From Actinomyces bowdenii (lineage in GTDB: Bacteria; Actinomycetota; Actinomycetes; Actinomycetales; Actinomycetaceae): 64,000 bases of DNA. This document shows positions 13,324-45,626 of the stretch, piece by piece. A program made the position numbers and the translations under genes. Within the stretch, counting starts at the first letter, position 1. Each line of letters begins with the position of its first letter. The stretch lies in contig NZ_JAGFOU010000010.1 in assembly GCF_017592395.1 (NCBI RefSeq), positions 1 through 64,000 of the forward strand. The letters are read 5' to 3'. The notes under the pieces are model-generated. The model worked only from the letters and a program-made list of their open reading frames with translations. It was not told the DNA's origin and searched no databases.

Positions 13324-13413
13324 CGCCGGGCCGCGGCAGTTCCCAGTGCCTCCCAGTACGACGGCCGTGGCGAGCACGCCGGGAAGTCCTGAAGATCCTT
13401 GATAGGAGCGCCC

Positions 13414-17206: not shown

Positions 17207-17611
17207 TTAGTTTGTTTCTGGTCGGCATTTGGTGAGGATCTCGTCGGGGGTCTTGGTCCAGGCAAAGGGGTGGCAGCGCTGGTTCCAGCCGTCGATGAAG
17301 GCGCGGATCTTGGCGTTGAGGTCCTTGAGCGAGGTGAAGACTCCCCGGCGGATGGCCGCGCGGGCGATGACGGAGAAGAAGATCTCGGCCATGTTGAGCC
17401 AGGAGGCGCTGGTGGGGGTGAAGTGGATGTGGATGCGGGGGTCGTCCTCCAGCCAGGCTTGTACCTGCGGGGTCTTGTGGGTGGCGTAGTTGTCCATGAT
17501 CAGGTGCAGCTCGACATCGGGGTAGGCCCTGGCGACTTGACGCAGGAAGGCCAGGAGCTCGGTGTGGCGGTGGCGGGGCCTGCAGGCGGCCGTGACGTGG
17601 CCGGTGGCCAT
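17207..17611 (-). pseudogene. IS630-type transposase, C-terminal fragment
   Basis: About 134 codons of a DDE_3/IS630 transposase. It has LHLIMDNYATHK (catalytic Asp) and ASWLNMAEIFFSVIARAAI (catalytic Glu) and ends normally with TAA. The first half, including the N-terminal helix-turn-helix, is missing; the gene stops being recognisable at the inverted repeat of the IS5-type element at 17616, so that insertion or a linked deletion removed it. Confidence 0.8.
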
Positions 17612-17615
17612 CTGA

Positions 17616-20335: not shown

Positions 20336-21445
20336 TCAGCGGGCGCCGTCGAGGACCTCCTGGGCGATCCGGCTGTACTGGCGGGCCCGCACCGGCCAGG
20401 TCCAGGGGGTGATGAGCTCGGGCGCGGCGGGCGCGGGCGGATCGGCCAGGAGCCCGCGCAGCGTGGCCACCAGCGAGGCGGTGGTGCGCTGGGCGCAGAT
20501 CATCACCGGGGCCCCCGAGTCGCGCAGCAGCCGCGCACCGGGAACCTCGAAGGTCACCACCCGGCCCCCCTCGGCGATGGCCTCCAGCAGCGTGGTCTGG
20601 AAGCCCTCGGACAGGACCGTGGGATTGACCAGCGTGGCGCCGTCGAGTCGCTTCCGCACCTGGGCGGCGGGCACCCGCCCGGGGATGTCGACGACACCGT
20701 CGAGTCCCAGCTCCGAGGCCCGCCGTCGCGCCAGGGCCAGGTCTGCGCCGTCGCCCAGCAGCTCGCCGTCGACCTCCAGGCCGCTGCGGCGCAGGGCCGC
20801 CAGCGCCTCCAGGAATGCGTCCCAGCCCTTGCCATCGACCACGCGCCCCACGAAGACCAGGCGGGAGGGACGATCGCTGTGCCGCCCGGTGCCCACCGGC
20901 GGCGTGATCGCGTTGTAGAAGACCTCCGCCTCCACCCCGCTCAGGCGCGTGACGAAGTCTGCCGCCTGGGGGGAGACCGCCAGGACGCGGTCGGCGCGGC
21001 GCAGGACGTGGCGCCCCCAGGTCAGGTCCACCGTCCGCGAGCCCGCGGCGATCACCGGGGAGGCGGAGGCCACGAAGCCGCTGCCGTGCTCGGTGTGGAT
21101 CACCGGGATGCCCGCGCGCCGGGCCGCCTGGAGCCCCACCAGGCTCATGGGGAAGAAGCGGGTATGGGTGGAGACCACCTCGATGCCCTCGGCGGCCAGG
21201 TAGTCGGCGATTCGCCGGGTGGTGCCCGGGGAGGGGAAGCTGATGACGTCGGCCACCGGCAGGCGGGAGCGCCCGGTCAGGACGGCGACGCTGCCATCAC
21301 GGCGCCGGCCCGGGCCCTCCTGGGAGACCGTGAGCACATGGACGCTGTGCCCCTGCTCCGCCATCCCCTGGGCCAGGTGCTGGACGTGGAACTCCAGTCC
21401 GCCGGTCCGGGGAGGGTAGGTGTTGGTGATGATGGCGAGCTTCAT
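20336..21445 (-). CDS. Glycosyltransferase family 4
   Basis: 369 residues. The N-terminal MKLAIITNTYPPRTGGLEFH and glycine-rich loop, VSPQAADFVTRLSGVEAEV, and the C-terminal half RLVFVGRVVDGKGWDAFLEA and LSEGFQTTLLEAIAEGG (E-x7-E) define a retaining GT4 enzyme. It is the last gene of the minus-strand licCA-licB-flippase operon, 83 nt after the flippase, so it should act on the glycan that receives phosphocholine. The donor is unknown. Confidence 0.88.
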   Translation of the reverse strand: MKLAIITNTYPPRTGGLEFHVQHLAQGMAEQGHSVHVLTVSQEGPGRRRDGSVAVLTGRSRLPVADVISFPSPGTTRRIADYLAAEGIEVVSTHTRFFPMSLVGLQAARRAGIPVIHTEHGSGFVASASPVIAAGSRTVDLTWGRHVLRRADRVLAVSPQAADFVTRLSGVEAEVFYNAITPPVGTGRHSDRPSRLVFVGRVVDGKGWDAFLEALAALRRSGLEVDGELLGDGADLALARRRASELGLDGVVDIPGRVPAAQVRKRLDGATLVNPTVLSEGFQTTLLEAIAEGGRVVTFEVPGARLLRDSGAPVMICAQRTTASLVATLRGLLADPPAPAAPELITPWTWPVRARQYSRIAQEVLDGAR

Positions 21446-21528
21446 GAGGTGATCCTTCTACCGCCCCCGGCGCATGGGGATCGAGCCGGGGCCGGGACCA
21501 TGCTAGCCGAGGAGCCCGGGGCCGGTCC

Positions 21529-22788
21529 TCAGGCCCCACCGGGCGCCCCGCCCCGCATCCGCGCCACGAGGAGGAGTGCGAAGACGGCGGCCAGGACGCC
21601 CATGGAGGCGCAGTAGGCGGCGCTGGCCCCCATGAGCCCGGCGCGGGGCACCAGCAGGCGGCACAGGCCCCAGGAGGTGGCGGCGGCCAGGGCATAGCCG
21701 AGGAGGACGACGCGCTGGTGGCGCATCGTCGTCAGCGCGTAGTAGAGGATGACCGCCGCGGCGTTGAGCGCGCCTCCGGCTAGGAGCACCATGAGCTCGG
21801 GGCGCAGCCCGGAGACGTCCTGGCCCAGGATCAGCTCCAGCAGGGGCGGGCCCAGCGGGTAGGCCACCGCCGCCACGATGGGCAGGACTGCCGTCGTCGT
21901 GGCCAGTCCCCGGCGGATGAGGCCGGTGAAGGCCTCACGGTCCCCCTGGGCCCAGCGCACCGCCATCGGCGTCAGCAGGGGCCGGAAGACCAGGAGCGAG
22001 AGCAGGTTGATGGTCACCGCCGGCATGTAGATGATCGCGAAGCAGCCCTGCGCCCTGAGATCCAGGTGGGCCGCGATGGCGTAGCGCGGCGCGTTGACCA
22101 GGTACATGGCCAGGAAGGAGGCCAGGAACAGCGGCAGGCACTCCAGGAGGAGCCCGCCGATGGCCCGCGCCCGCCACTGGGGCCGGCGGGAGATGAGACC
22201 GCGCGCCGGGGGCAGGAAGGCCGCCAGCACCGCCAGCAGGGACACCGGCAGTGCCACCAGGGCGGAGACGGCCAGGTCGCGGGTGAGCGCGAGGGCCAGG
22301 CAGAAGGCGCTCACGGTCACGGCCGTGCGCAGCGTGCTGGCCCGGCCGCCCAGGTCCAAGCGCCCCGCCCGCTGGAACTCCGCGAGGAAGACGTCCTCGA
22401 AGGCGTCGAAGACCCGCAGGCAGGCCACCACGATGATGACCAGGGCCGTGGTGGCGGTGGAGGAGACCCATAGGGCGTTGCCGATGATCCCCAGCACCAT
22501 GAGCCCCACCGTGACGAGCCTGGTGGCCAGGTAGACGCCCATGCTGAAGCGCCGGCGGACGTCGGTGGCCTGGTAGGCGCGCACCTCGTACATGCCCAGG
22601 GTCTGGAACAGCTGGCCGATCCCGATGGCCAGTGAGTACAGGCCCAGGGCCTCGATCCCGGCGGTCCGGTTGACCATGGCGAGCATGACCACCAGGGCCA
22701 GGGACCCCGTCAGGGAGGCCGCCGCATTCCACAGGTAGTCGCGCCTGGGCGGAGCGGCGCCCGATGCCCGGGGCCCGTCGCTGTGCAC
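21529..22788 (-). CDS. TacF/Wzx-like polysaccharide flippase A
   Basis: 419 residues with about 12-14 membrane segments and no soluble domain. The start RRDYLWNAAASLTGSLALVV and the motif YEVRAYQATDVRRRFSMG resemble Wzx/TacF flippases of the MOP superfamily; the second flippase at 29766 has a matching RLRTLQVTDVKGERSSG. It lies 25 nt after licB. In the pneumococcal lic locus the same neighbourhood holds tacF, which flips choline-bearing teichoic-acid units, so the same role is inferred here. Confidence 0.82.
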   Translation of the reverse strand: MHSDGPRASGAAPPRRDYLWNAAASLTGSLALVVMLAMVNRTAGIEALGLYSLAIGIGQLFQTLGMYEVRAYQATDVRRRFSMGVYLATRLVTVGLMVLGIIGNALWVSSTATTALVIIVVACLRVFDAFEDVFLAEFQRAGRLDLGGRASTLRTAVTVSAFCLALALTRDLAVSALVALPVSLLAVLAAFLPPARGLISRRPQWRARAIGGLLLECLPLFLASFLAMYLVNAPRYAIAAHLDLRAQGCFAIIYMPAVTINLLSLLVFRPLLTPMAVRWAQGDREAFTGLIRRGLATTTAVLPIVAAVAYPLGPPLLELILGQDVSGLRPELMVLLAGGALNAAAVILYYALTTMRHQRVVLLGYALAAATSWGLCRLLVPRAGLMGASAAYCASMGVLAAVFALLLVARMRGGAPGGA

Positions 22789-22813
22789 GGCCGCCCGCCT
22801 GGCAGTGGCCCGG

Positions 22814-23779
22814 TCAGTGCGTGAGGACCGGGGTGCCGGTGCCGGTGCGCGTGCGCGGGGGCCCCAGCCGCAGGTCGCTCCAGTCGGGGGTGGCCGCGAG
22901 CACGGTGCCCACGAGGATGACCACGCAGCACACCACCTGCAGGACGGTGGGCACGGTCCCCTGGAGGACCAGCGCGAAGACGACCGCCCACGCCGAGTAG
23001 GAGATGTTGAGGGCCATGCCGCGCGAGGCGCCGATCTGGCCGATGGCCTTGAAGTAGAACAGGTAGGACACCGCTCCGGCCAGGGAGGCCAGGAAGACCA
23101 TGCCCATGGATGGGGACAGGGCGGCCTGCGAGGAGAATCCGACGATCCCCGCCACGGGCGCGACCACGAGGATGTAGGCGAGTCCCGATGTCGTCTGGCG
23201 GATGTGCAGGGCCGTCTCGTTGTCCACCTTGTCGTCGCGCATCCCCCAGGCGAGGATGACGGCCTCCCCGCCCCATCCCAGGACGCATGCCAGGGCGGCG
23301 ATGACCCCGATGAGGGGGGAGGGGCCGGTCTGCGTGGTCGAGGACGACCAGGCGATGAGGATGATGGCGGTCAGCGCCACCATGAGGGCCACGATCTGGC
23401 GGGGCCGCATCCGCTCCTTGAGCAGTAGGAAGGCCAGGAGCGTGCCCACGGCGGGGTAGAAGGTGGAGATGATGGCGGTGTAGCCGGGACCGATGTTGTT
23501 GATGGCGATGAGGTACCCGCTCATCCCCACCGGTCCGCCCATGACGGCGCCGGCCATGACGGCCTTGCCGCTGCGGGTCCTGATGGCCTCCAGGGTGTGC
23601 CCCAGCCGTCCGCGCATCCCCATGTAGACCAGGAGGATGATGGCCGAGACGGCGTCGTGCAGCAGGGCGCTGGCCAGGGAGGCCTCACCGGCGCCCAGGA
23701 AGGGGGACATCGCCAGGGCTATGCCCAGGACCACAGTGTCCAGCCCCCACAGGCAGCCGGAGATGATGCCGAACCTCAT
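22814..23779 (-). CDS. licB: LicB-like choline permease (EamA/DMT family)
   Basis: 321 residues with ten predicted membrane segments. The sequence follows LicB closely: SGCLWGLDTVVLGIALAMSP, LHDAVSAIILLVYMGMRG, and GGPVGMSGYLIAINNIGPGY, the last being a LicB signature. It should import choline. The ATG overlaps the stop of the licC-licA fusion gene, and the flippase follows. Generic DMT transport is the fallback, but the neighbours make choline the obvious substrate. Confidence 0.88.
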   Translation of the reverse strand: MRFGIISGCLWGLDTVVLGIALAMSPFLGAGEASLASALLHDAVSAIILLVYMGMRGRLGHTLEAIRTRSGKAVMAGAVMGGPVGMSGYLIAINNIGPGYTAIISTFYPAVGTLLAFLLLKERMRPRQIVALMVALTAIILIAWSSSTTQTGPSPLIGVIAALACVLGWGGEAVILAWGMRDDKVDNETALHIRQTTSGLAYILVVAPVAGIVGFSSQAALSPSMGMVFLASLAGAVSYLFYFKAIGQIGASRGMALNISYSAWAVVFALVLQGTVPTVLQVVCCVVILVGTVLAATPDWSDLRLGPPRTRTGTGTPVLTH

Positions 23780-25632
23780 GATCCGCTCCTCGTGCTCAGT
23801 CGGTGGCTGTCCAGGGGGGAGGGCAGCTCGGTGGTGCCGGACTCATAGGAATCCAGCAGGGCGTCCACGTAGTTGGCGGCGTGGCGGTAGTAGATGAGGA
23901 GCCACTCCCCGGCGTCGTCGCCCTCGGCCGCCTTGACCAGGGCCCACACGTACCAGCACCACCCGGCGAAGACGACGTAGGCCCAGAAGTGGCGGCGCTC
24001 GACATCGGTGGGCCTGCGGCCGAAGTAGGAGCCCAGCGCCGCATCGGCGCGCTCCTCGGACAGCTCGGCGCACACCACCATGGTGCCGAAGTCGTTGGCC
24101 ACGTCGGACATGCCGGCGTACTCCCAGTCGATGAGGTGGATGCCGTCGCGGTCGTCGACCAGGAAGTTCAGGGGGAAGAAGTCGTTGTGGCTGGGCACCA
24201 GGGGGAATCCGTCGGCGTCGGCGTGGGCCTTGAGCCGCATCACCTTCTCGCGCAGCTCGGCGTAGCCGGGGACGTCGATGGGCCCGTGCTCCGTGAGCAG
24301 GGACTCGTAGCGGATGCCCTCGTCGATGAAGTCGAAGCTGCGCGACAGGGTCCGGCCGCTCTGGTGGAGGCTGCGCGCCATGATCATGGCCTGGGACAGC
24401 TCGTGGGTGCTGGAGGCATCCAGGTTGTGGGCGTCGGGGATGAAGCGGGAGATCTTCCAGCCCTTGAGCGGATCGCCGGTGAGGAAGGTTCCGTCCAGCC
24501 CCAGGTCGCGGGCCAGGTGCAGGGCCTCGAACTCGGCCTGGCGGTCCACGATCTTGTCCGTGCCGATGCCCGGGTGGCGGTAGACGTACTCCTCGCCTGA
24601 GACCGAGAAGTGACAGGACAGGTTGGTGATGCCCTGCTTGAGGGGGTAGAAGTCCTGGATCTCGGATTTGGCGCATCCCAGGGAGGATGAGATGTTGTCG
24701 AAGACCTCGGAGTCGAGGTTCTCCATGAACATGGGGTCGAAGCCGCGGATCTCATCGACCGAGTCGAACTCGTTGATGACTCCCGCCGGGTACTGGCGGA
24801 TGACCATGTCGAGCTCCTTGACGTGCTCGATGTAGATCGACTCCCACAGCTTGGGCAGGGTCTCGGGAAGGTGGTAGACCCGCTCCAGGATCCGGCGGAA
24901 GGCGGAGGAGAAGGCGCGGTCGAAGTAGACGTGCCCCAGCATCGTCCAGGCGTCGGCGCCGCCGACCCGGGCGCCGGTGATGCGCCCGCCGGGGCCGGTG
25001 GCCAGGCACCACTCCTGGGTGGGGCCCTCGACGTACTGCGCCGAGTAGTAGGCCTTGTAGACGTGGGAGTCGAAGGGGTTGACGGTGAAGTAGTCGTCGG
25101 AGGAGCACACATAGGTGTTGCCCAGGTCCTCGCGCACCAGCCACAGGGAGCCGTTGTTGTTGCGGGTGACGTAGTCGTCGTTGACCACGATGCGCACGCC
25201 CAGCTGCTCGGCCAGGTGGAAGAAGTACTCCTTCTTGTAGCCCACCACCAGGGTGATGTCGGCGATCCCGGCCTCCTGGAGCTGGCGGATCTGGCGCTCG
25301 ACGAGCACCTCCCCGCGCACGCGCAGCGTGCCCTTGGGGCGCTCGTAGGAGATCGGCGCGAATCGGCGCGAGAGCCCGGCGGCCATGATGATGGCGTTGT
25401 CCACCCGGTAGGGCTCCAGGGCCTGCCGGCCGGTATCGGTGATGCTGCGCTCGGCGATGTGGCCCAGGGCCTCGCACTCGCGCACCGCGGTGTTGACGGC
25501 TCCCAGGGACATGCCGGTGGTCTCGTGGATCTGCCGCTGGGTCAGGGCCGCCCCGGCCCGCAGGAGGGCGTAGAGGACGTCGAACTGGGGCTGGGTGAGC
25601 GCGCCCGCTGGGGTGGTCACGGAAGGCACCAT
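23776..25632 (-). CDS. licCA: Winged-helix / CTP:phosphocholine cytidylyltransferase / choline kinase fusion (LicC-LicA)
   Basis: 618 residues, three parts. Residues about 10-72 form a winged helix (TQRQIHETTGMSLGAVNTAV). Residues 78 to about 310 are LicC: MAAGLSRRF at 83-91, Lys100, IADITLVVGYKKEYF, CSSDDYFTVNPFD. Residues about 320-600 are LicA kinase: GEEYVYRHPGIGTDK, the Brenner motif PSHNDFFPLNFLV (about 480) and HLIDWEYAGMSDVAND (about 500). It should phosphorylate choline and activate it with CTP. The N-terminal domain may be autoregulatory or sense choline (inference). It heads the minus-strand operon. Confidence 0.9.
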   Translation of the reverse strand: MVPSVTTPAGALTQPQFDVLYALLRAGAALTQRQIHETTGMSLGAVNTAVRECEALGHIAERSITDTGRQALEPYRVDNAIIMAAGLSRRFAPISYERPKGTLRVRGEVLVERQIRQLQEAGIADITLVVGYKKEYFFHLAEQLGVRIVVNDDYVTRNNNGSLWLVREDLGNTYVCSSDDYFTVNPFDSHVYKAYYSAQYVEGPTQEWCLATGPGGRITGARVGGADAWTMLGHVYFDRAFSSAFRRILERVYHLPETLPKLWESIYIEHVKELDMVIRQYPAGVINEFDSVDEIRGFDPMFMENLDSEVFDNISSSLGCAKSEIQDFYPLKQGITNLSCHFSVSGEEYVYRHPGIGTDKIVDRQAEFEALHLARDLGLDGTFLTGDPLKGWKISRFIPDAHNLDASSTHELSQAMIMARSLHQSGRTLSRSFDFIDEGIRYESLLTEHGPIDVPGYAELREKVMRLKAHADADGFPLVPSHNDFFPLNFLVDDRDGIHLIDWEYAGMSDVANDFGTMVVCAELSEERADAALGSYFGRRPTDVERRHFWAYVVFAGWCWYVWALVKAAEGDDAGEWLLIYYRHAANYVDALLDSYESGTTELPSPLDSHRLSTRSGS

Positions 25633-25666
25633 CCGTTCATCGTGGAAGGGGTTGTGGGTGTGTTCG

Positions 25667-25701
25667 AGAATAGTGCTTCATGGGTGATAGGTGAACGTAT
25701 A
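25667..25701 (-). promoter_or_regulatory. Promoter of the licCA-licB-flippase-GT4 operon
   Basis: On the minus strand, -10 TATTCT (25667-25672) is preceded after 17 nt by TTCACC as -35. The expected transcript start is about 25-30 nt before the licCA ATG. Confidence 0.5.
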
Positions 25702-26048
25702 GGGCTGTGACGTCGGTCTCCGGTGGGGGAGTGGCCTCGGAGTGCCAGGCGCGGGGAGGCGCCACGGGCGCTGTGCCCGCCGCCCAATCCGCGGCCCCTC
25801 CGCCTGCCCGGGGCGGGACCAGGACGAGTCCCCGCTTCTGGCCGTGCTTTCCTGGGAGGGCGCGAATGCGGTCGGCCGGTGGAGGCTTCGATGCCGGTGT
25901 GGGGTCGGTGGTGGTTCCTGCCGTGGTGGGTGGCCCCGTGCTGTGCCGGCTGGGCTGGGACCGTGCTGAGGGAGGCCCGGTGCCCCGGGATGGCGGGCCG
26001 GCGCCAGTGGGCCAGGGCTGGCGGCGGCGGTGGGGCGGGTTCGATGGG

Positions 26049-26144
26049 GCGTCACTTCGCGACAGAGGCGTCACTTCGCGACATGGACGACACCTGCAGG
26101 TACCGTCCATGTCGCGAAGTGACGCGCTTTTCGCGAAACGACGC
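26049..26144. repeat. Palindromic intergenic repeat, CACTTCGCGACA type
   Basis: Perfect 22-bp arms at 26068-26089 and 26104-26125 enclose a 14-nt centre, most of which (ACCTGCAGGT) is itself palindromic. A further copy of GCGTCACTTCGCGACA precedes the left arm (26049) and a degenerate partner follows the right arm (to 26144), so the whole unit is a nested palindrome. A decayed relative lies at 42210-42305. Confidence 0.7.
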
Positions 26145-26287
26145 AGGGCCTGCGCCCCCACCATCCTCCCGAGCCTGCGGCCATCCCGGCGACACGCGAC
26201 CCTCCCGGAGCGCGTGGCCCTCCCGGGCCTCTTGCTCCCCCTGGCGCACCACTGCCAGCCCCGCCCACCCCGAAACCATCCAGCGCA

Positions 26288-26377
26288 CCAGGGCCACCCA
26301 GCCCAGAACCCCGACGCGGGACGCCGAGTGTTGCCCGCCGAGGTCGCTGCCAGGGCCACCCAGCCCAGAACCCCGAC
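26288..26377. repeat. 28-bp direct repeat, two copies 62 bp apart
   Basis: Identical 28-nt units at 26288-26315 and 26350-26377, each containing GGGCCACCCAGCCCAGAA. No coding frame explains it; a local tandem duplication is the simplest reading. Confidence 0.7.
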
Positions 26378-26430
26378 CCGCACCCCGGGCCAGCCCGAGC
26401 CGGGAAAGGGGCACCGTCCGGCCGCGCCGT

Positions 26431-26973
26431 TCACCCTCCGGGGAAGGGCGCCTCGCTCGCGGCAGTGGGTGGGGTGCCTGATCGCGGGGAATCGGCGGGC
26501 CCGGGGCGCGCAGGGGTCTGAGGGCCCTTGGCGTGGTGGGAGCGGCCTGTGGGGCCGGCTGGGTCTGCCGGGCCCGCCGGGGCGCCCGGGCCCACAGGGC
26601 CGGTGCGCGAGCGGGCCTCGCCGGTGAGGCGGTCGGTCAGCCCGGCCTCGGTGACGATGAGGTTGAGGATGGCGATGTTCTCCGCCAGGACCCGGGTCTC
26701 ATCCTCCATGCGGCTGATCTCCAGGGACAGGTGGAGGGCCACGCCCAGCAGCAGGAAGATCGCCAGGACGAAGAGCAGGTTGGAGGGCACCTCGAAGCCC
26801 AGGAGCTGGGACAGCGCCTTGAGCAGTCCCGGCACGGTGGCCAGGAGCACGATCGCCAGGCCGACGACGATCCACAGCGCGGCGTACTTCTCCCGCAGCC
26901 TCCGGCTGCGCAGCAGGGCCAGGATGAAGAAGACCGTCAGGGCCGCCACCAGGACGTAGAAGAGCTGGAGCAT
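26431..26973 (-). CDS. DUF2304 membrane protein
   Basis: 180 residues with AGGAGG before the ATG at 26973. Three membrane segments (about 1-18, 34-52 and 67-88) carry the DUF2304 pattern LREKYAALWIVVGLAIVLLA and SNLLFVLAIFLLLGVALHLS. A short helix follows (RMEDETRVLAENIAILN), then a Pro/Gly-rich tail. The gene starts 2 nt after the stop of a polyprenol-phosphate-type GT2, the usual partner of DUF2304 proteins in glycan loci. It probably anchors or assists that enzyme; its own activity is unknown. Confidence 0.85.
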   Translation of the reverse strand: MLQLFYVLVAALTVFFILALLRSRRLREKYAALWIVVGLAIVLLATVPGLLKALSQLLGFEVPSNLLFVLAIFLLLGVALHLSLEISRMEDETRVLAENIAILNLIVTEAGLTDRLTGEARSRTGPVGPGAPAGPADPAGPTGRSHHAKGPQTPARPGPADSPRSGTPPTAASEAPFPGG

Positions 26974-26975
26974 GG

Positions 26976-27734
26976 TCAGTCCTCCTGGGCGGCGCCGGGC
27001 GCCGCGGTGGGGCGCCGGGTGCGGTCGATGGGGCGGCGGGTCAGGGAGATGAAGAGGGCGAACATGCTGCGGCCCAGGTAGATGGCGGACTTCCACGGGT
27101 TGTTCGACGGTGTGCCGGCCTGTCGCGGGCGCATGGAGACCCCCACCTGGCTGACGGTCAGGCCAGAGCGCAGGGCGATGACCAGGGAGTCGATCGTGTC
27201 GCCCAGGTACTCGGCGGGGTAGTGCAGGCAGTACTGGTCGATGGCGGTGGCATCGGCGGCCCTGAAGCCGCTGGTGACGTCCGTCAGGCGCGTGCGCGCC
27301 ACCCGGCCGACGATGGCGGCGAGCATGACCATGGCCCACCGGCGCGGGCCGCGGGCCCGGTAGGTCCCCGCCTCGGCGAAGCGCGCCCCGATGGAGATGT
27401 TCGAGTGCTCCAGCCCCGCCAGGACGGCCTCGATGTCGCGCGGGTCGTGCTGGCCGTCGGCATCGACCTGGATGGCGCGCTCATAGCCGAAGCGGTGGGC
27501 GAACTTGTAGCCCGCCCGCATGGCGCCCCCCACGCCGAGGTTGTAGGGCAGGTCCAGGACGTGGGCCCCGGCCCGCCGGGCGACCTGGGAGGTGCGGTCC
27601 TGCGAGCCGTCGTTGACCACGAGGAGGTCGTATCCGGGGACGGTCTGCCGCAGTTCGCGAATGGTCTCGCCGATGGCCGCCTCCTCGTTCCAGGCGGGCA
27701 TGATGACGAGCGTTCGGGGGACATGTGTGGGCAT
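26976..27734 (-). CDS. Glycosyltransferase family 2, DPM1-like
   Basis: 252 residues. The start at 27734 is chosen because AGGAG lies just upstream; earlier in-frame ATGs give unusual residues. GT-A motifs are VIMPAWNEEAAIGETIRELR, LLVVNDGSQDRT, and AIQVDADGQHDP (DxD). It resembles dolichol/polyprenol-phosphate mannosyl- or glucosyltransferases without a C-terminal membrane domain. The DUF2304 protein encoded 2 nt downstream may supply the membrane anchor. It would make a lipid-linked sugar for decorating an exported glycan. Confidence 0.87.
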   Translation of the reverse strand: MPTHVPRTLVIMPAWNEEAAIGETIRELRQTVPGYDLLVVNDGSQDRTSQVARRAGAHVLDLPYNLGVGGAMRAGYKFAHRFGYERAIQVDADGQHDPRDIEAVLAGLEHSNISIGARFAEAGTYRARGPRRWAMVMLAAIVGRVARTRLTDVTSGFRAADATAIDQYCLHYPAEYLGDTIDSLVIALRSGLTVSQVGVSMRPRQAGTPSNNPWKSAIYLGRSMFALFISLTRRPIDRTRRPTAAPGAAQED

Positions 27735-27967
27735 GGGGCTCCTGACGGCCGGGGCGCAGACGGTACCCATGCTACGGCGGCGCGGCCGGTGCGCGCCGCC
27801 CCGCGCCACGCGATGGCTGTGCCAGCGGCGGGTATCGGGCCCGGCTGCTGCCGGCGGGCTGCGCACGGCGCGGGGGGAGTGCTCCAGCAGGTACCATCGT
27901 GGCGCCGATGCCGCCAGGACACTGGCCGGTGCGGCGGGCACGGACGTCGTGAAGGAAAGGGCCTGGG

Positions 27968-28822
27968 ATGGGTTCGCTCTCCTTGGAGGAGATCAAGAAG
28001 GTCGAGCTGGACTGCCTGCGCGAGCTGGACCGCCTGTGCGCGGAGCACGGCCTGACCTACGTCCTGGCCTACGGCACCCTCATCGGGGCCCTGCGCCACG
28101 AGGGCTTCATCCCCTGGGACGACGACATCGACGTGCACATGCCCCGGGCCGACTACGAGCGGCTCTACCGCCTCTACCAGGACGGCGCCCTGGACCCCCG
28201 CTTCACCATCGCCTCCTACCGGGACCGCTCCTCGATCTACCCCTTCTTCAAGCTGGTGGACACCCGCACCCGTGCCGAGGAGACCTTCATCGACGAGCGC
28301 AATGCCCTGGGCCTGTGGGTCGACATCTTCCCCCTGGAGCGCGTCGACCTCACCGACCCCCGTCTGGAGCGGATCAGGAGGCGGGCCTCCCGCCTCGTGT
28401 GGTGGCGCCACCTGGCGGCCACCGACCCCCGCTATGCCACCTCCTCCGCCGCCCGCCTGGTCAAGCGCCTCATCCACCCCTTCACCCGGCGCATCGACCC
28501 CTACGACGTCGCCCGCAAAGCCGACGCCCTGGCCCGCTCGGCCGATGCGGGCGCGGGCGCGCGCCAGGAGGACCTGCGCCACGTGCTGCTGGTCGATGAC
28601 CGCATGGACCGCAACATCCTGGCCCCCGACGACCTCCTGCCCACCCGCCGGGCCGCCTTCGAGGGGCAGTCCTTCGCCGTGCCCGCGCGGGCCGAGGAGA
28701 TCCTCACCTCCTACTACGGCGACTGGAGGCGCGTGCCGCCGCCCGAGGAGCGCCCGCCCTCCCACCTGCGATCGGTCACCTGGGTCCGCCCGGAGCATGG
28801 GGGCGGGGCCCGCCATGACTGA
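27968..28822 (+). CDS. licD: LicD family phosphocholine transferase, copy 1
   Basis: 284 residues from the ATG at 27968. The LicD hallmark is at 35-66: YGTLIGALRHEGFIPWDDDI followed by DVHMPRADYERL. DDDID (51-55) is the likely metal site, as in nucleotidyltransferase-fold LicD/fukutin enzymes. LicD transfers phosphocholine from CDP-choline to a sugar of the glycan precursor. It heads a plus-strand operon with a GT2 and a flippase. A LicD-like enzyme may move another phospho-alcohol, but licA, licB and licC homologues within 8 kb argue for choline. Confidence 0.88.
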   Translation: MGSLSLEEIKKVELDCLRELDRLCAEHGLTYVLAYGTLIGALRHEGFIPWDDDIDVHMPRADYERLYRLYQDGALDPRFTIASYRDRSSIYPFFKLVDTRTRAEETFIDERNALGLWVDIFPLERVDLTDPRLERIRRRASRLVWWRHLAATDPRYATSSAARLVKRLIHPFTRRIDPYDVARKADALARSADAGAGARQEDLRHVLLVDDRMDRNILAPDDLLPTRRAAFEGQSFAVPARAEEILTSYYGDWRRVPPPEERPPSHLRSVTWVRPEHGGGARHD

Positions 28823-29753
28823 GCACGCGAGCCGCCGGCCCGCCGGCGGGCCGGGAACCCCGGGCGAGGGGCCCGCCTCCGCGCCCCCCACCGTCTGCGT
28901 CTTCACCCCCACCTACGAGCGCGCCTACATCCTGCCCGTGCTCTACAAGAGCCTGGTGGCCCAGACCAGCCAGGACTTCGTGTGGATGATCGTGGACGAC
29001 GGCTCCACCGACTCCACCGAGGAGCTCGTGCGCTCCTGGATCGAGGAGGGCCGCATCGCCATCGACTACGTGCGCACCGAGAACGGCGGCAAGCCCCGGG
29101 CCATCAACCTGGGCGTGGCGCGCTCCAGCAGCCCCCTGTTCTTCGTCGTCGACTCCGACGACTGGCTGGTGCCCACCGCCATCGAGCATGTGCTCTCGGT
29201 GTGGGGGAGGATCGAGGGCCAGGAGCGCTACGCCGGCATCGTGGCCCTGCGCGGCACCGACGAGGCCACGCCCATGGACACCTGGATGCCCGAGGGCGCC
29301 GCGGACGTGAAGTACTGGGACCTGTTCGAGACCATGGGATTCCGGGGGGACACCTCCCTCATCCACCGCACCGAGGTGCTCCGCCGCTACCCCTACGACG
29401 TCGCCCCCGGGGAGATCTTCATCGCCGAGACCTCCGTGTACTACCGCCTCGATGAGCACTACGACATGCTCGCCGACAACACCATCCTCACCATCTGCCA
29501 CTACCTGCCCGACGGGCTGACCCACAACTTCGCGGCCAACGCCAAGCGCAACCCCATCGGCTACTGGAAGCACAAGCGCTACTGCGCCCAGCGCTCCACC
29601 ACGCTCAAGGGCGTGGCCCGCGAGACGCTGCTCTACCTCGTGGGATGCCGGCTGGCGGGCCAGCGCGGAGCCATCTCCATGGCCCCGAACAAGGCCGTGG
29701 CCCTCGCCTGCTACCTGCCGGCCCTGGTGGCCCGCCACACCATCTTCAGGTAG
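28815..29753 (+). CDS. Glycosyltransferase family 2
   Basis: 312 residues; the ATG at 28815 overlaps the licD stop by 8 nt. A flexible N-terminus of 25 residues precedes TVCVFTPTYERAYILPVLYK, then MIVDDGSTDSTEE, ENGGKPRAINLGVA, and VVDSDDWLVP (DxD-like metal site). The C-terminal part has QRSTTLKGVARETLLYLVG and may touch the membrane. Co-translation with licD suggests it adds the sugar that LicD modifies (inference). Confidence 0.87.
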   Translation: MTEHASRRPAGGPGTPGEGPASAPPTVCVFTPTYERAYILPVLYKSLVAQTSQDFVWMIVDDGSTDSTEELVRSWIEEGRIAIDYVRTENGGKPRAINLGVARSSSPLFFVVDSDDWLVPTAIEHVLSVWGRIEGQERYAGIVALRGTDEATPMDTWMPEGAADVKYWDLFETMGFRGDTSLIHRTEVLRRYPYDVAPGEIFIAETSVYYRLDEHYDMLADNTILTICHYLPDGLTHNFAANAKRNPIGYWKHKRYCAQRSTTLKGVARETLLYLVGCRLAGQRGAISMAPNKAVALACYLPALVARHTIFR

Positions 29754-29765
29754 GGGGTGCGGACC

Positions 29766-31064
29766 GTGTCAGCCACCCCCGGGAGGATCGGGAGGCCGGG
29801 AGAGCCCGCGGCCTCCCGCAGGACGCAGGCGGACCAGGCGCCCCAGGCGCTGTCCCTGCGGACCAACATGCTGTGGAACTCCGCGGGCTCCATCACCAGG
29901 CTGGGCTGCAACTACATGCTCAGCATCGTGGTGGTCTGGCTCTCCCGCGGTTTCGACGCCGCCGGCGTCCTGACCCTGGCCGTGGCGGTCTCCAACCTCG
30001 TCACCCCCTTCGCCGACTTCCGCCTGCGCACCCTCCAGGTCACCGATGTCAAGGGCGAGCGCAGCTCGGGGGCCTACGTGGGCCTGAGAATCGCCACCAC
30101 CGCCCTGGCCTTCGCCGCCGGGGCGGTCTATGCCCTGGCCACCACCGCCCTCGATGCGTTCCCCGTCATCATCCTGTACCTCATCTACAGCCTGGCCGCC
30201 AACTTCATCGAGGTCCTCCACGCCATTGATCAGCGGCACCGGCGCATGGACTACATCGGCCGGTCCTACATGATGCAGGGCCTGCTCAGCTTCACGGGCT
30301 TCTGCCTGGGCCTGTGGCTGACCAACTCACTGGAGGTGGCGGTGGGGCTCATGGCAGTGGCCACCATCGCCATCGGCGTCCTCTACGACGCGCCCCGGGC
30401 GGCCCTCTTCGAGCCCCTGCGCCCGCAGATCGACATCCGGCCCGCCCTCAGGATCCTGGCCGGCCTGCTGCCCCTGGTCATCGCCCAGGTGTGCTCCAGC
30501 GCCGTCCTGGTCATCCCGCGCCAGTACCTGGCCGCCACCTCCGGCGAGAGCGACCTGGGCATCTACAACTCGATCGCGGCGCCGGTGCTCCTGGTCCAGA
30601 CAGGGGCGGCCTTCGTCTACGGCCCCCTCATGGGGGAGTTCGCGGAGAAGTTCCAGACGGACAAGCGGGGGGCCATGAGGCTGCTGCGCAAGACGACCCT
30701 CCTCCTGCTGGCCGTCACCGGTCTCATCGCCCTGGTGCTGCTCCTGGTGGGCGAGCCGCTCCTGGAGCTCGTCTTCGGCCCGGAGATCCTGCCCCATGTC
30801 GGCCTCCTCCAACCGACACTGCTGTGCACGATCATGACGGCCTTCGCCTGGTTCATGAACGACCTGCTGCTGGCCCTGCGGGACTACACGGCCAGTTTCG
30901 TGGGCAATGCGCTGGCGGCCCTGACCACTCTGGCCCTGTCCACCACGATCGTGGACGCCTTCGGCATGAACGGCATCAGCTGGATGGGGGTCATCGCCTA
31001 CGGCATCGCGGTCCTGAGCCTGCTGGCCTTCCTCATGCGCGACTACCGCCGCCTGGAGGCCTGA
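29766..31064 (+). CDS. TacF/Wzx-like polysaccharide flippase B
   Basis: 432 residues from the GTG at 29766, with AGGGGG 8 nt before it; a GTG at 29757 is the alternative. About 12-14 membrane segments; NMLWNSAGSITRLGCNYMLS and RLRTLQVTDVKGERSSGAYV align with flippase A (21529-22788), so the two are paralogues. It is the third gene of the licD-GT2-flippase operon and should flip the phosphocholine-bearing lipid-linked unit (inference). The end is convergent with the second licD. Confidence 0.82.
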   Translation: MSATPGRIGRPGEPAASRRTQADQAPQALSLRTNMLWNSAGSITRLGCNYMLSIVVVWLSRGFDAAGVLTLAVAVSNLVTPFADFRLRTLQVTDVKGERSSGAYVGLRIATTALAFAAGAVYALATTALDAFPVIILYLIYSLAANFIEVLHAIDQRHRRMDYIGRSYMMQGLLSFTGFCLGLWLTNSLEVAVGLMAVATIAIGVLYDAPRAALFEPLRPQIDIRPALRILAGLLPLVIAQVCSSAVLVIPRQYLAATSGESDLGIYNSIAAPVLLVQTGAAFVYGPLMGEFAEKFQTDKRGAMRLLRKTTLLLLAVTGLIALVLLLVGEPLLELVFGPEILPHVGLLQPTLLCTIMTAFAWFMNDLLLALRDYTASFVGNALAALTTLALSTTIVDAFGMNGISWMGVIAYGIAVLSLLAFLMRDYRRLEA

Positions 31065-31070
31065 GCCGCG

Positions 31071-31125
31071 GGGCACCGGCGGCACCGGCGCACCGGCGCA
31101 CCGGCCATGTGGCGGCCGGCCGGCG
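31071..31125. repeat. GC-rich tandem CACCGGCG repeat with hairpin potential
   Basis: Between the convergent flippase B and licD2 stops, CACCGGCG-like units repeat four times (from about 31074) and are followed by GGCCGGCCGGCGGCC, which can pair with them. It could act as a terminator for both strands. Confidence 0.4.
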
Positions 31126-31136
31126 GCCCGCCAGGC

Positions 31137-32081
31137 TCACATGGCGTCGGGGTCGTGACGGCCGAAGTCCACCCGCACCGGCTTGTGATTGACCCGTTCC
31201 TCCTGGGGCGGCAGCGCCATGTAATCGCCGTAGCCGCGCCGCAGCACGGCATCGTAGCCGCGGGGCAGCTCGACCATGATGTCCTCGAAGGGCACGCGGG
31301 AGGTGGGGAAGAGCTCGGCCTCGCTGGCGGACCAGCGCAGCGGCTCCTGGGTGGAGTAGTCCCCCAGGACCCGGGAGCCCCCCGCACTGCGGCCCGAGCC
31401 GTCCTCGTACAGGCGCGCGGCCCGCTCCCAGCGCTGGTAGAGGGCGGCGGGGGAGACCCTCAGCCCCCGCATCGTCCCGTGCACCGCGTGGAACACGGCG
31501 GCGGCGGCGGCCCCGACCGCGCCCGTCAGCCCCGTCTCCGGGGTGGCGCTGCCGTGGAGGAAGAGCATGCGCCCCCACACCCAGGTGCGCCGGCTCTGGC
31601 GGCGGAAGGCCCTCCGGTCCCGCGGCACCCGGTCCAGGGGGAAGACGTCCACGCCGATGGGCACGGGGAAGGACCGCTGGGCCGCGGCGGCCGGGACGAA
31701 CTGCGTGCCCACCAGGCCCATGACCGCGAAGGTCTTGGGGTAGTCGCGGTGGGAGCGCTGGCTCATCACCACGAAGTCCTCCCCGATCGCCCCGGGGGCC
31801 AGCTCCAGGAAGCGCTCGTAGTCGGCCCGGGGCATGCACACGTCGACGTCGTCGTCCCAGGGGATGAAGCCCTGGTGGCGCACGGCGCCGATGGCGGTGC
31901 CCCCGTAGACGGCGTAGGCGATGCCCAGCTCGCCGCATACGCGGTCCAGCTCGCGCAGCACGCAGGTGGTCGCGCGCTGCACCCGGCGCAGCGTCGCCTC
32001 GTCCTCGATGGGGCCGCTCGGGGCCGGGCCGGTGCGCCGACCGGAGGGCGCGCCGGACGCGCCGGGATCAGTGGGGCTCAT
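31137..32081 (-). CDS. licD: LicD family phosphocholine transferase, copy 2
   Basis: 314 residues. LicD motif GGTAIGAVRHQGFIPWDDDV at 60-79, then DVCMPRADYERF; DDDVD at 76-80. It is distinct from copy 1 and longer by an N-terminal disordered lead (1-25) and an inserted helical region (about 160-230). The gene follows rmlA by 74 nt on the same strand, so it is probably co-transcribed with it. Two LicD proteins in pneumococcus modify two different GalNAc residues of one repeat; the same division of labour is possible here (inference). Confidence 0.86.
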   Translation of the reverse strand: MSPTDPGASGAPSGRRTGPAPSGPIEDEATLRRVQRATTCVLRELDRVCGELGIAYAVYGGTAIGAVRHQGFIPWDDDVDVCMPRADYERFLELAPGAIGEDFVVMSQRSHRDYPKTFAVMGLVGTQFVPAAAAQRSFPVPIGVDVFPLDRVPRDRRAFRRQSRRTWVWGRMLFLHGSATPETGLTGAVGAAAAAVFHAVHGTMRGLRVSPAALYQRWERAARLYEDGSGRSAGGSRVLGDYSTQEPLRWSASEAELFPTSRVPFEDIMVELPRGYDAVLRRGYGDYMALPPQEERVNHKPVRVDFGRHDPDAM

Positions 32082-32155
32082 GGTGACTCTCTTCTCCTTC
32101 TCTTCCCCGGCGCCGGGTCCGCCGGCCGCCTCCGCGCTTGTCGGCGCCCGCCGCC

Positions 32156-33049
32156 TCAGTGCCCCTCGGCCCCGTGGCCTCGCCGGGAGCGGGCCAGGAT
32201 GTCCAGGAGGTACTGGCCGTAGCCGGACTTCACCAGCGGCTCGGCGCGCTGGCGCAGTCCGTCGTCGTCGATGAAGCCCATGCGCCAGGCGACCTCCTCG
32301 GGGCAGCCGATGTTGAGGCCCTGGCGGTGCTGGACGGTGCGGATGAAGCTCGTGGCGTCGGCCAGGGAGTCGAAGGTCCCGGTGTCCAGCCAGGCGGTGC
32401 CGCGGGGCAGCACCTCCACGCTCAGGCGCCCCGCCTCCAGGTAGGTGCGGTTGACGTCGGTGATCTCGTACTCCCCGCGCGCCGAGGGCTTGAGGGCCTT
32501 GGCGATCTCGACGACGTCGTTGTCGTAGAAGTACAGGCCCGGCACCGCGTAGTCGGACTTGGGCTCGGCGGGCTTCTCCTCGATGGAGACCGCCCGGAAG
32601 TCGGCGTCGAACTCCACCACGCCGTAGGCGGAGGGGTCGGCCACCTGGTAGGCGTAGACGACGCCGCCGTCGGGGCTGGTGTGACGGCGCAGCTGGGTGC
32701 CCATGCCCGGGCCGTAGAAGATGTTGTCGCCCAGGACCAGGGCAGCGCTCTCGCCACCGATGAACTCCGCCCCCAGGACGAAGGCCTGGGCCAGCCCGTT
32801 GGGGACCTCCTGGACGGTGTAGGACAGGTTGACGCCCAGCTGCGAGCCGTCGCCCAGGAGACGGTGGAAGCTGGGGGCGTCATGGGGCGTGGTGATGATG
32901 AGCACGTCCTGGATGCCCGCGAGCATGAGGGTGCTCAGCGGGTAGTAGATCATCGGCTTGTCGTAGACCGGCACCAGCTGCTTGGAGGTGCCCAGGGTGA
33001 TGGGGTTGAGTCGCGTGCCGGAGCCGCCGGCCAGGATGATGCCTCGCAT
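32156..33049 (-). CDS. rmlA: Glucose-1-phosphate thymidylyltransferase
   Basis: 297 residues starting [20 protein letters not shown]; the ATG at 33049 is chosen over upstream ATGs because it gives the family N-terminus directly. GGSGTRL (nucleotide loop), [30 protein letters not shown] and [20 protein letters not shown] are RmlA signatures. It makes dTDP-glucose from Glc-1-P and dTTP, the first step to dTDP-rhamnose, completed by RmlB (not here) and RmlCD (13414-14946). Confidence 0.95.
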
Positions 33050-33237
33050 GGGCCTAGTGTGGCCCATCTGGGTCCCATGTGGCACTTCTGAGCCCTCCGG
33101 GTCACGTGCGCGCCCATGCGGCCCCCGCCCCGCCGGCCCTGCGCGGCGCGTCCGCACTGCCCGGCGCCGCGGCCCCGGCCCCGCGGCCTGACGTGATTGT
33201 GATCCGGCCCCTGCAGGGCCCGGGGAGCCGTGGCGGG

Positions 33238-33251: not shown

Positions 33252-34442
33252 ATGGAATCCCTTGAGCCCGCACGCCAGCGCTATGACTGGGGGTCGCGCA
33301 CCGCGATCCCCGAGCTGCTGGGCTGCGCGCCCGACCCCGATCCCTGGGCCGAGGCCTGGTACGGCACCCACCCCGCGGGGCGCACCCGGCTGGCCGACGG
33401 CACCAGCCTCAGCGAGCACATCGAATCCGACCCCCAGCGGCTCCTGGGGGAGGACGTCATGCGCCGCTTCGGCACCGGGCTGCCCTATCTGCTCAAGATC
33501 ATCGCCCCCGAGCGCGCCCTGTCCCTCCAGGTCCACCCCAGCCTGGAGCAGGCCGCCTCGGGCTACGAGCGCGAGCAGGAGGCCGGGCTGGCCCTGGACG
33601 ACCCCGCTCGCAGCTACAAGGACGCCAACCACAAGCCGGAGATGGTCCTGGCCCTCACCCGCTTCGAGGCGGTCGCCGGATTCCGCGCGCCGCGCCGCGC
33701 CGTCGAGGTCCTGTCCGACCTGGACACCCCGCTGGCCCGGCGCATGCGCCGCAGCCTGAGGCTCAACCCCACGCGCTTCGGCATCCGCCAGGTCTTCACC
33801 GACCTGGTCAGCGCGGACACCCGCCCGGGCCCCGGGGAGATCGAGGAGCTCGTGGCGCAGATCTCCGCCCGCCATGAGGCCGGCGCCTCACCCTCGGCGA
33901 GGGTGGACGCCAATGCGGTGGCCATGGCCCGCACCTTCCCCACCGACCCCGGAATCGCCGCCTCCCTCCTGCTCAACCCCGTCACCCTCCAGCCGGGGGA
34001 GGCGCTCTTCGTGCCCGCGGGATGCGTCCACGCCTATGTCGGCGGCCTGGGGGTGGAGATCATGGCCTCCTCGGACAACGTGCTGCGCGCGGGGCTGACG
34101 ACCAAGCACATCGATGTTCCCGAGATGCTGGCCTGCGTGGACTACGTGGCCGCGCCCCCGGTGCGTCCCGCGCCCGAGTACCTCTCGCGCGCCACCCGCG
34201 CCTACTACGCCCCGGTGGACGACTTCGAGCTCATGGTCACCACCGTGGTCCCCGCCGACGGCGCCCTGCAGGTCCCCGGCCGGGGGCCGCGCATCGTCCT
34301 GGCCGTCGAGGGGACCACCACGGTGACCAGTCGCCGGGGCAGTAGGCGGATGACCCGGGGGGGCGCCGTCTTCGTCGGTGCCGACGAGCGGGTCCTGAGC
34401 GTCGAGGGCGAGGGCACGCTCATCCAGGCCGACCTGCCCTAG
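33252..34442 (+). CDS. manA: Mannose-6-phosphate isomerase, class I
   Basis: 396 residues. Metal-site motifs of type I PMI are present: [22 protein letters not shown] and [20 protein letters not shown], followed by [14 protein letters not shown]. It interconverts fructose-6-P and mannose-6-P and feeds GDP-mannose and glycan synthesis. The gene is divergent from rmlA and near whiB, as in mycobacteria, where manA lies close to whiB2. No phosphomannomutase gene is in the window. Confidence 0.94.
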
Positions 34443-44584: not shown

Positions 44585-44598
44585 GACAGACTTCCTGT

Positions 44599-45594: not shown

Positions 45595-45626
45595 GCCGAC
45601 GCGGCCGCTGCTTCTCATGGCGCGGC

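What the first reader, a model, noticed from the sequence alone, without database searches (positions are those of the whole stretch)
20336..33049. Complete phosphocholine-decoration (lic) pathway in a high-GC actinobacterium
The sequence shows a LicB-type permease, a LicC-LicA fusion, two LicD transferases, two TacF-like flippases and glycosyltransferases within 13 kb, interleaved with rmlA. LicABCD is established in pneumococcus, Haemophilus and related bacteria for host-mimicking phosphocholine on teichoic acid or LPS. Here it is tied to a rhamnose-type cell-wall glycan locus. That this strain displays phosphocholine on a wall polymer is inference.
Basis: partly seen in the sequence, partly recalled or inferred. 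Interest (0 to 1): 0.85.

Follow-up and report, generated by a model that had tools for sequence, protein, structure and literature searches.

The report
Choline-tagged cell wall system in Actinomyces
This Actinomyces-like bacterium carries a complete gene set for putting the host-like molecule phosphocholine on a surface sugar polymer, together with surface proteins that look built to grip that tag, which suggests a pneumococcus-style cell surface in an unrelated group of bacteria.

Summary
In detail: 20.3-33.2 kb encodes LicB, a LicC-LicA fusion, two LicD transferases, two flippases, glycosyltransferases and RmlA. Lic genes and anti-phosphocholine reactivity are already in print for A. gerencseriae and A. 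viscosus (PMC10434233). New here: (1) the genome encodes four proteins with 35 pneumococcal-type choline-binding repeats, one an amidase/glucosaminidase. (2) In 213 Actinomycetaceae genomes the fusion and such repeats co-occur (54 both, 20 fusion only, 5 repeats only, 134 neither); on an rpoB tree they change together (13 independent pairs: mean 9.4 same, 0 opposite), while Cas1 and sialidase do not. (3) lic looks like a replaceable cassette beside rmlA, and an orthologous autolysin carries the repeats in 23 of 28 lic+ and 0 of 18 lic- genomes. (4) The fusion starts with a winged helix, and GTTC-N27-GAAC lies upstream of it in 52 of 81 loci (about 0.25 expected). Best reading: an autoregulated phosphocholine surface-polymer system with choline-docked proteins. 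Phosphocholine itself, its acceptor, docking and the regulation are inferred.

The parts
25662..25696 (.). Putative operator GTTC-N27-GAAC upstream of the fusion gene, 29 nt before the ORF's first ATG
   Evidence: Only hit in the 64-kb window; same motif and spacing in 52 of 81 upstream regions of the fusion (80 loci + window) against 23 hits in 1.51 Mb of the rest of the 80 loci
23776..25632 (-). Winged-helix + CTP:phosphocholine cytidylyltransferase (LicC) + choline kinase (LicA) fusion, 618 aa
   Evidence: PF12802 residues 12-67; 1jyk E=1e-37; 4r77 E=5e-28; AlphaFold model pLDDT 89.6 and Foldseek; choline-box residues
22814..23779 (-). LicB-type choline importer (DMT/EamA), overlaps the fusion by 4 nt
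   Evidence: PF00892; PDB 7b0k LicB E=2e-32
21529..22788 (-). MOP/Wzx-type polysaccharide flippase A
   Evidence: AlphaFold model pLDDT 91; Foldseek WzxE 9g9p E=3e-9, TM 0.76; 29% identical to flippase B
20336..21445 (-). GT4 family glycosyltransferase, last gene of the unit
   Evidence: PF13439 E=8e-26
26976..27941 (-). GT2, polyprenyl-phosphate glycosyltransferase type (PpgS/AglJ-like); start uncertain; not part of the conserved core
   Evidence: PF00535; NCBIfam PpgS E=5e-27, below that model's cut-off
26431..26979 (-). DUF2304 small membrane protein; start uncertain; not part of the conserved core
   Evidence: PF10066 E=6e-24
27968..28822 (+). LicD1 phosphocholine transferase candidate
   Evidence: PF04991 E=5e-42, full length
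28815..29753 (+). GT2 glycosyltransferase; start uncertain
   Evidence: PF00535 E=1e-19
29757..31064 (+). Flippase B
   Evidence: PF01943 E=2e-4, below the curated cut-off; 29% identical to flippase A over 333 aa
31137..32081 (-). LicD2 phosphocholine transferase candidate, directly after rmlA
   Evidence: PF04991 E=7e-33; NCBIfam Mf1 diacylglycerol cholinephosphotransferase E=1e-14, below that model's cut-off
32156..33157 (-). RmlA glucose-1-phosphate thymidylyltransferase; start uncertain (33049 likely)
   Evidence: PF00483 E=6e-73

Best explanation
The locus imports choline (LicB), phosphorylates and CTP-activates it with one protein (LicA and LicC domains) and transfers phosphocholine by two LicD enzymes onto lipid-linked repeat units of a surface glycopolymer, which MOP flippases export. 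The displayed phosphocholine is the docking site for choline-binding proteins encoded elsewhere in the genome, including an amidase/glucosaminidase autolysin. The block is a replaceable cassette beside rmlA, and the autolysin's wall-binding repeats change with it. The winged-helix domain of the fusion probably binds the conserved palindrome upstream of its own gene, so that the enzyme regulates its own operon. Shown by sequence: the genes, the repeats, the co-occurrence, the repeat differences and the conserved palindrome. Inferred: phosphocholine on the wall, the acceptor sugar, docking, and autoregulation.
For: Family, PDB and fold matches. Seven of twelve LicA active-site positions that I mapped are kept in at least 51 of 53 fusions, among them Y505, W560 and W563 of the aromatic choline box (residues from passages of PMC4364537). 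Own genome: four choline-repeat proteins on three contigs, 35 GW-x6-WY repeats, no LPxTG-like motif in the last 60 residues, repeats matching the pneumococcal consensus in PMC4929436 (passage). Fusion x PF19127 over 213 genomes: 54/20/5/134, p=1e-27; x PF01473: 48/26/4/135, p=6e-24. Tree-corrected: 13 independent pairs, mean 9.4 same, 0 opposite, median p 0.002; controls Cas1 1.8 v 0.8 and sialidase 3.3 v 3.1. Autolysin ortholog with choline repeats 23 of 28 lic+ v 0 of 18 lic-. Cassette replacement. Operator 52 of 81 at N27, 73 of 81 at N26-28. A. gerencseriae, reported reactive with anti-phosphocholine antibody (PMC10434233), carries the orthologous genes (L052, fusion 78% identical).
Against: No chemistry: phosphocholine was not seen here. 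LicA pocket residue E213 is Cys in 51 of 53 fusions, Q31 is Leu and K45 Arg in all 53, so the kinase pocket is not identical. Of 74 genomes with a fusion match 20 lack PF19127 repeats; in genus g1 these are G010, G011, G043, G049, in g27 G156 and G172; five g27 genomes have repeats without lic. The repeat family also has glucan-binding members (PMC4929436), and by E-value the best PDB matches of the C14 protein are long repeat regions of clostridial toxins (E=3e-86), ahead of pneumococcal CbpJ (5e-42) and CbpF. Five lic+ genomes have an autolysin without choline repeats, two of them with LGFP like some lic- ones. The autolysin difference alone, corrected for the tree, gives 6 pairs (3.9 same, 0 opposite), p 0.125, not significant. 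Part of the co-occurrence could be co-transfer, since a choline-repeat gene often lies within 31 kb of lic (23 of 26 genomes that I selected). That the winged helix binds the palindrome is untested; 8 of 81 loci lack it at spacing 26-28, and none was found in the fetched stretches around the four choline-repeat genes.
Confidence: 0.82

Rival explanations
1. The enzymes make CDP-choline, but LicD transfers phosphocholine to a membrane glycolipid (as the name of the Mf1 family of Mycoplasma fermentans suggests) rather than to an exported wall polymer.
For: LicD2's only NCBIfam hit at E<=0.1 is Mf1 diacylglycerol cholinephosphotransferase, E=1e-14, far below that model's cut-off.
Against: Two flippases and several glycosyltransferases sit in the block; choline-repeat proteins and the repeats of an autolysin track the locus, which calls for surface-exposed phosphocholine. 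A glycolipid displayed on the outer face is not excluded.
Confidence: 0.1
2. The repeats in the four proteins bind another ligand (glucan, as in streptococcal glucosyltransferases) and their co-occurrence with lic reflects shared ecology.
For: The repeat family includes glucan-binding members (PMC4929436); the C14 protein also matches clostridial toxin repeats and glucosyltransferase-S in PDB.
Against: Sialidase, taken as a host-associated control trait (my assumption; some sialidase frames themselves carry the repeats), shows no association on the same tree (37/13/19/14, p 0.15; pairs 3.3 v 3.1); the repeats match the pneumococcal choline-binding consensus and CbpF, CbpJ, LytA; none of the 18 lic- genomes of g1 has PF01473 or PF19127 at E<=1e-5.
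Confidence: 0.07
3. The locus handles a different amino alcohol (for instance ethanolamine or an N-methylated analogue) instead of choline.
For: The conserved E213-to-Cys, Q31-to-Leu and K45-to-Arg changes in the LicA domain.
Against: The aromatic cation box (Y505, W560, W563, W577) is kept in 49 to 53 of 53, the LicB match is to the choline importer, the best fold matches are LicC and choline-bound LicA, and antibody reactivity for phosphocholine is reported for a species with the orthologous genes.
Confidence: 0.05
4. The palindrome upstream of the fusion is bound by another, unlinked regulator rather than by the fusion's own winged helix.
For: No binding data; the Pfam class (MarR_2) is broad.
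Against: The site is conserved upstream of the fusion across two classes (Actinomycetes, Coriobacteriia), and S42 L43 G44 N47 of the winged-helix domain are nearly invariant in 32 fusions.
Confidence: 0.25

Closest known systems
Streptococcus pneumoniae lic1/lic2 + TacF with choline-binding proteins (LytA, LytB, Pce, CbpA)
   Same: LicA, LicB, LicC domains, two LicD, a MOP flippase in the block; an autolysin with GW-x6-WY repeats
   Different: LicC and LicA fused behind a winged helix; flippase orthology to TacF not established; linked to rml genes; the autolysin is Amidase_2 + repeats + glucosaminidase, a different domain order from LytA
Haemophilus influenzae lic1 (licABCD), phase-variable
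   Same: Same four activities
   Different: Separate genes there (figure legend in PMC10434233); tandem-repeat scan of 20.0-33.5 kb found no tetranucleotide array of the kind recalled for lic1A
Lic-1 genes of Actinomyces gerencseriae and A. viscosus (Zhang et al. 2023, PMC10434233)
   Same: Same pathway in the same genus; A. gerencseriae DSM 6844 (L052) has ManA, RmlA, fusion, LicB, LicD and flippase side by side
   Different: In L052 the LicD follows LicB, in the window it follows rmlA, and no LicD1-GT2-flippase B unit was found in L052. The passages of that paper that I read do not mention a winged-helix fusion, choline-binding proteins, cassette replacement or an operator
NadR of enterobacteria (recalled; no call)
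   Same: Architecture: helix-turn-helix + nucleotidyltransferase + kinase in one protein
   Different: Different substrates (NAD salvage); analogy only

Membership tests
Lic-1 phosphocholine pathway | Choline kinase (LicA) | tested here: met
   PDB 4r77 E=5e-28; D176, N181 and D194 equivalents kept in 53 of 53; E213 not kept
Lic-1 phosphocholine pathway | CTP:phosphocholine cytidylyltransferase (LicC) | tested here: met
   PDB 1jyk E=1e-37, Foldseek TM 0.92 by target
Lic-1 phosphocholine pathway | Choline importer LicB | tested here: met
   PDB 7b0k E=2e-32
Lic-1 phosphocholine pathway | LicD transferase | tested here: met
   Two PF04991 genes, only these two in the genome
Lic-1 phosphocholine pathway | Phosphocholine on a surface glycan | not testable with these tools
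   Needs TEPC-15, CRP or 31P NMR
TacF-type choline-dependent flippase | MOP-superfamily fold | tested here: met
   Flippase A model matches WzxE, TM 0.76, then MATE and MurJ structures; flippase B not modelled
TacF-type choline-dependent flippase | TacF orthology and phosphocholine gating residues | not tested
   TacF sequence not fetched; sequence searches of PDB gave nothing for flippase A and only WzxE at E=0.92 for the profile
Choline-binding proteins | Tandem ~20-aa repeats TGW...GSWYYL...GxM | tested here: met
   11, 8, 6 and 10 repeats in four proteins; PF01473/PF19127 E from 1e-33 to 1e-69
Choline-binding proteins | Binding of choline | not testable with these tools
   Needs choline-affinity chromatography or elution from cells
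Autoregulated enzyme (NadR-like logic) | DNA-binding domain in the enzyme | tested here: met
   PF12802 residues 12-67 E=2.5e-9; three helices, strands, helix at pLDDT about 93-96
Autoregulated enzyme (NadR-like logic) | Conserved operator-like site upstream of its own gene | tested here: met
   52 of 81 at N27, 73 of 81 at N26-28
Autoregulated enzyme (NadR-like logic) | The domain binds that site | not testable with these tools
   Gel shift needed

The most novel reading that the evidence does not exclude
Across host-associated Actinomycetota, surface phosphocholine is a switchable wall chemotype: a cassette swapped in and out beside rmlA, run by a self-regulating enzyme (winged helix + cytidylyltransferase + kinase) that senses choline status at its own promoter, while autolysins and surface proteins gain or lose choline-binding repeats to match. 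It would be a second, independently elaborated choline-anchored cell surface besides that of streptococci.
Probability: 0.55. Interest if true: 0.87.

Novelty: new variant of a known kind. Interest (0 to 1): 0.78.

Why it matters
If true, a large group of actinobacteria (the fusion is in records named Actinomyces, Schaalia, Arcanobacterium, Bifidobacterium, Gardnerella, Olsenella, Collinsella and others) may show a host-mimicking tag of the kind bound by C-reactive protein, and use it to hold autolysins and surface proteins. It makes an old serological finding (anti-phosphocholine reactivity of oral Actinomyces, cited in PMC10434233) mechanistically testable, gives lic+/lic- sister species for comparison, and offers a candidate choline-responsive operator that can be tested in vitro.

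Tried and rejected
Phase variation by tandem repeats: scanned 20.0-33.5 kb, no tetranucleotide array. A link of the PpgS/DUF2304 pair to the acceptor sugar (a GalNAc-type residue): close matches of the GT2 (score 440 or more) lie in only 2 of 80 loci (L056, L059; the others score lower or have none), so I do not build on it. TacF orthology by sequence: nothing useful. My first regular expression for repeats was too strict and gave 0, 2, 0, 3 repeats; corrected. Operator at the four choline-repeat genes: none in L011-L013. Papers: ten searches showed, in their listings and the passages I opened, no report of the winged-helix fusion, its operator, or the autolysin repeat difference in Actinomyces; the library lacks most subscription journals. 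Choline-binding proteins as such had been noted in A. odontolyticus XH001 (PMC6166536, passage) and in a group of Arcanobacterium phocae (PMC8235330, passage), and LicD in Gardnerella (PMC2928729, passage).
Full report
OBSERVATION. A codon-position scan and family searches give this order on the window: GT4 20336-21445(-), flippase A 21529-22788(-), LicB 22814-23779(-), winged helix-LicC-LicA fusion 23776-25632(-), DUF2304 26431-26979(-), PpgS-like GT2 26976-27941(-), LicD1 27968-28822(+), GT2 28815-29753(+), flippase B 29757-31064(+), LicD2 31137-32081(-), RmlA 32156-33157(-), then ManA 33252-34442(+). By position and strand I read three units: rmlA-licD2, licD1-GT2-flippase B, and fusion-licB-flippase A-GT4. 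The fusion and licB overlap by 4 nt. The matches are far beyond chance: LicC 1jyk E=1e-37 and LicA 4r77 E=5e-28, LicB 7b0k E=2e-32, LicD E=5e-42 and 7e-33. These are the only two LicD matches of the genome.

STRUCTURE. AlphaFold of flippase A (34-row alignment, pLDDT 91) matches the lipid III flippase WzxE best (9g9p, E=3e-9, TM 0.76) and then MATE and MurJ structures: a MOP flippase. The fusion model (32 rows, pLDDT 89.6) has a winged-helix-like N-terminus (H14-26, H32-39, H43-55, short strands, H66-75), and Foldseek ranks LicC 1jyk and choline-bound LicA 4r7b first and second. LicA residues that bind choline or nucleotide, taken from passages of PMC4364537, were mapped through the alignment onto 53 fusions (window plus 52 of the 80 loci; 28 not entered): T29, D176, N181, D194, W251, W254 identical in 53 of 53; Y197 in 51; Y268 is W in 49; V178 is F in 48; E213 is C in 51 and S in 2; Q31 is L and K45 is R in 53 of 53. 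The aromatic cage is kept; the acidic rim residue is not.

CHOLINE-REPEAT PROTEINS IN THE SAME GENOME. PF01473 gives 33 repeat matches at E<=0.001 in the window's genome, in four open frames on three contigs. I read them: 467 aa and 486 aa neighbours on C32, 340 aa on C53, 965 aa on C14. Their N-termini look like signal sequences by eye; no signal-peptide program was run. By Pfam the last is Amidase_2 + choline-binding repeats + glucosaminidase, and the gene beside it looks like rmlB (epimerase/dehydratase family). Counting GW-x6-WY gives 11, 8, 6 and 10 repeats, and no LPxTG-like motif in the last 60 residues. The repeats follow the pneumococcal consensus TGW-b-(K,Q)DNGSWYYLN-x-SG-z-M given in PMC4929436 (passage), a source that also says that the repeat family contains glucan-binding proteins and clostridial toxins. 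In the PDB the C14 protein's best matches by E-value are indeed long clostridial toxin repeat regions (3e-86), then CbpJ (5e-42), Pce (1e-41) and CbpF (5e-41) among others; long repeat arrays score high whatever their ligand, so this ranking does not settle the ligand.

CO-OCCURRENCE. The 213 held genomes of the family were searched. Fusion at E<=1e-10: 74 (a few of these are partial or distant matches). PF01473 at E<=1e-5: 52. PF19127: 59. LicD: 79. Fusion with PF19127: both 54, fusion only 20, repeats only 5, neither 134 (p=1e-27); with PF01473 48/26/4/135 (p=6e-24); with LicD 74/0/5/134. In the window's genus (49 genomes) 27/4/0/18; in g27 (35 genomes) 18/2/5/10. One of the five repeat-only genomes (G149) is 70% complete; in the other four the PF19127 match and the BNR_2 sialidase match lie in one open frame. 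Because relatives are not independent, I built an rpoB tree (quick IQ-TREE search, SH-aLRT support, no bootstrap) of 83 of the 84 genomes of the two genera (G039 had no rpoB match). Each trait needs 15 changes. Of 13 independent pairs differing in lic on well-supported branches, the repeats go the same way in 9.4 on average, the other way in 0, and do not differ in 3.6 (median p 0.002, range 0.002-0.016). Two control traits on the same tree show nothing: Cas1 45/5/26/7, p 0.21, pairs 1.8 v 0.8; sialidase 37/13/19/14, p 0.15, pairs 3.3 v 3.1.

CASSETTE AND AUTOLYSIN. Comparing stretches of two lic+ (G032, G027) and four lic- (G019, G042, G012, G034) genomes, rmlA and the gene after the block are orthologous, while the block in between is lic and other genes in one set and, in G019, G042 and G012, one other large gene (DUF2142 in G019, to which the G042 gene is 90% identical; DUF7657/DUF7654 in G012); G034 has none. 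About 25 kb from rmlA in both lic+ genomes lies the amidase. Its catalytic region has an ortholog in 46 of 49 genus genomes at 61-92% identity; the three without (G010, G014, G018) are lic+. Its frame carries at least two choline repeats after the amidase match in 23 of 28 lic+ and in 0 of 18 lic- genomes (p=2.4e-8); in three of the 18 the frame is cut by the end of the stretch (G003, G019, G023). Nine repeat-free amidase frames were scanned with Pfam. Six lic-: LGFP repeats in G042, G012, G024; a sub-threshold FG-GAP-like hit in G025; no known repeat in G050, G013. Three lic+ exceptions: LGFP in G004 and G049, no known repeat in G011. The five lic+ exceptions are G004, G006 (incomplete fusion; frame ends with the amidase), G011, G043, G049; of these G011, G043 and G049 have no PF19127 repeats anywhere. 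On the tree this trait alone has 6 pairs, 3.9 same and 0 opposite, p 0.125: in the right direction but not significant by itself. Between the block and the amidase most genes are orthologous in lic+ G032 and lic- G042, so for that pair a single-block transfer does not explain the change; for G027 and G012 the intervening genes differ more. A choline-repeat gene lies within 31 kb of the fusion in 23 of 26 genomes that I picked from the listings (not a random set).

OPERATOR. Upstream of the fusion in 80 named loci plus the window, GTTC-N27-GAAC occurs within 200 nt in 52 of 81, against 23 hits in 1,513,439 nt of the rest of these loci, that is about 0.25 expected. With spacing 26-28 it is 73 of 81. 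Many loci are close relatives, so these are not 81 independent cases. The consensus is tGTTCA..tt...............ta.a.TtGAACAt: a wide inverted repeat with a -10-like TA.a.T just before the second arm. In the window the only hit is 25662-25696, 29 nt from the first ATG of the fusion. That the winged helix binds there is my inference.

SPREAD. In full-length loci LicB lies in 21 of 24 (Actinomycetes) and 24 of 27 (Coriobacteriia), a LicD in 23 of 24 and 17 of 27, a flippase in 17 and 18. The LicD1-GT2-flippase B unit of the window is present as such in L053 and L060 among the named Actinomyces loci, so the commonest core there is fusion-LicB-LicD2-flippase A.

WHAT IS KNOWN. PMC10434233 (abstract, passages and the whole of its Lic-1 section) states that A. 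gerencseriae and A. viscosus contain Lic-1 enzymes, and lists them among species for which antibody recognition is the only evidence of phosphocholine (it cites Gmur 1999, seen as a reference entry only). A. gerencseriae DSM 6844 carries the orthologous genes (L052, 78% identity of the fusion). So the pathway in the genus is known; the coupling with choline-repeat proteins, the cassette nature, the autolysin repeats and the self-regulating enzyme were not found in my ten paper searches. I rate it a new variant of a known kind.

Noticed in passing
window 13399-14946: RmlC and RmlD are fused in one 515-aa frame (dTDP_sugar_isom + RmlD_sub_bind), followed by a DUF2142 membrane protein 14906-17143; DUF2142 is also what stands in place of the lic block in lic- G019.
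   Followed up: partly
window 17207-18498: Transposase remnants (DDE_3, HTH_Tnp_4) at the edge of the lowest-GC stretch (0.588 at 18-20 kb), between the rml genes and the lic block.
   Followed up: no
G151:C2:1015403-1017091, G157, G160, G163: A lic-negative clade of g27 keeps a choline-repeat match in a ~800-aa frame that also holds the sialidase match: a possible relic, or repeats with another ligand.
   Followed up: no
G154:C1:1257184-1269353 and similar in G146, G159, G162: Series of ~1300-aa frames with choline-binding repeats about 4 kb apart in g27 genomes: an expanded family of such proteins.
   Followed up: no
G006:C3:61879-62745: The lic fusion matches only residues 11-147 and 220-373 in a 446-aa frame, and the amidase frame ends right after its catalytic domain: both parts of the system seem to decay together.
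   Followed up: no
phage record NC_048022.1 (Eggerthella phage PMBT5) 23581-24003: An Eggerthella phage endolysin carries repeats 51% identical to the C14 choline-binding repeats, which hints at choline in the wall of some Eggerthellaceae; records named Paraeggerthella and Gordonibacter carry the lic fusion.
   Followed up: no
window 43685-60873: SpoIIM/RDD/DUF58/MoxR-type AAA/DUF4350 cluster, then a response regulator-histidine kinase pair, a Germane-domain protein and SecA: ordinary actinobacterial neighbourhood.
   Followed up: no
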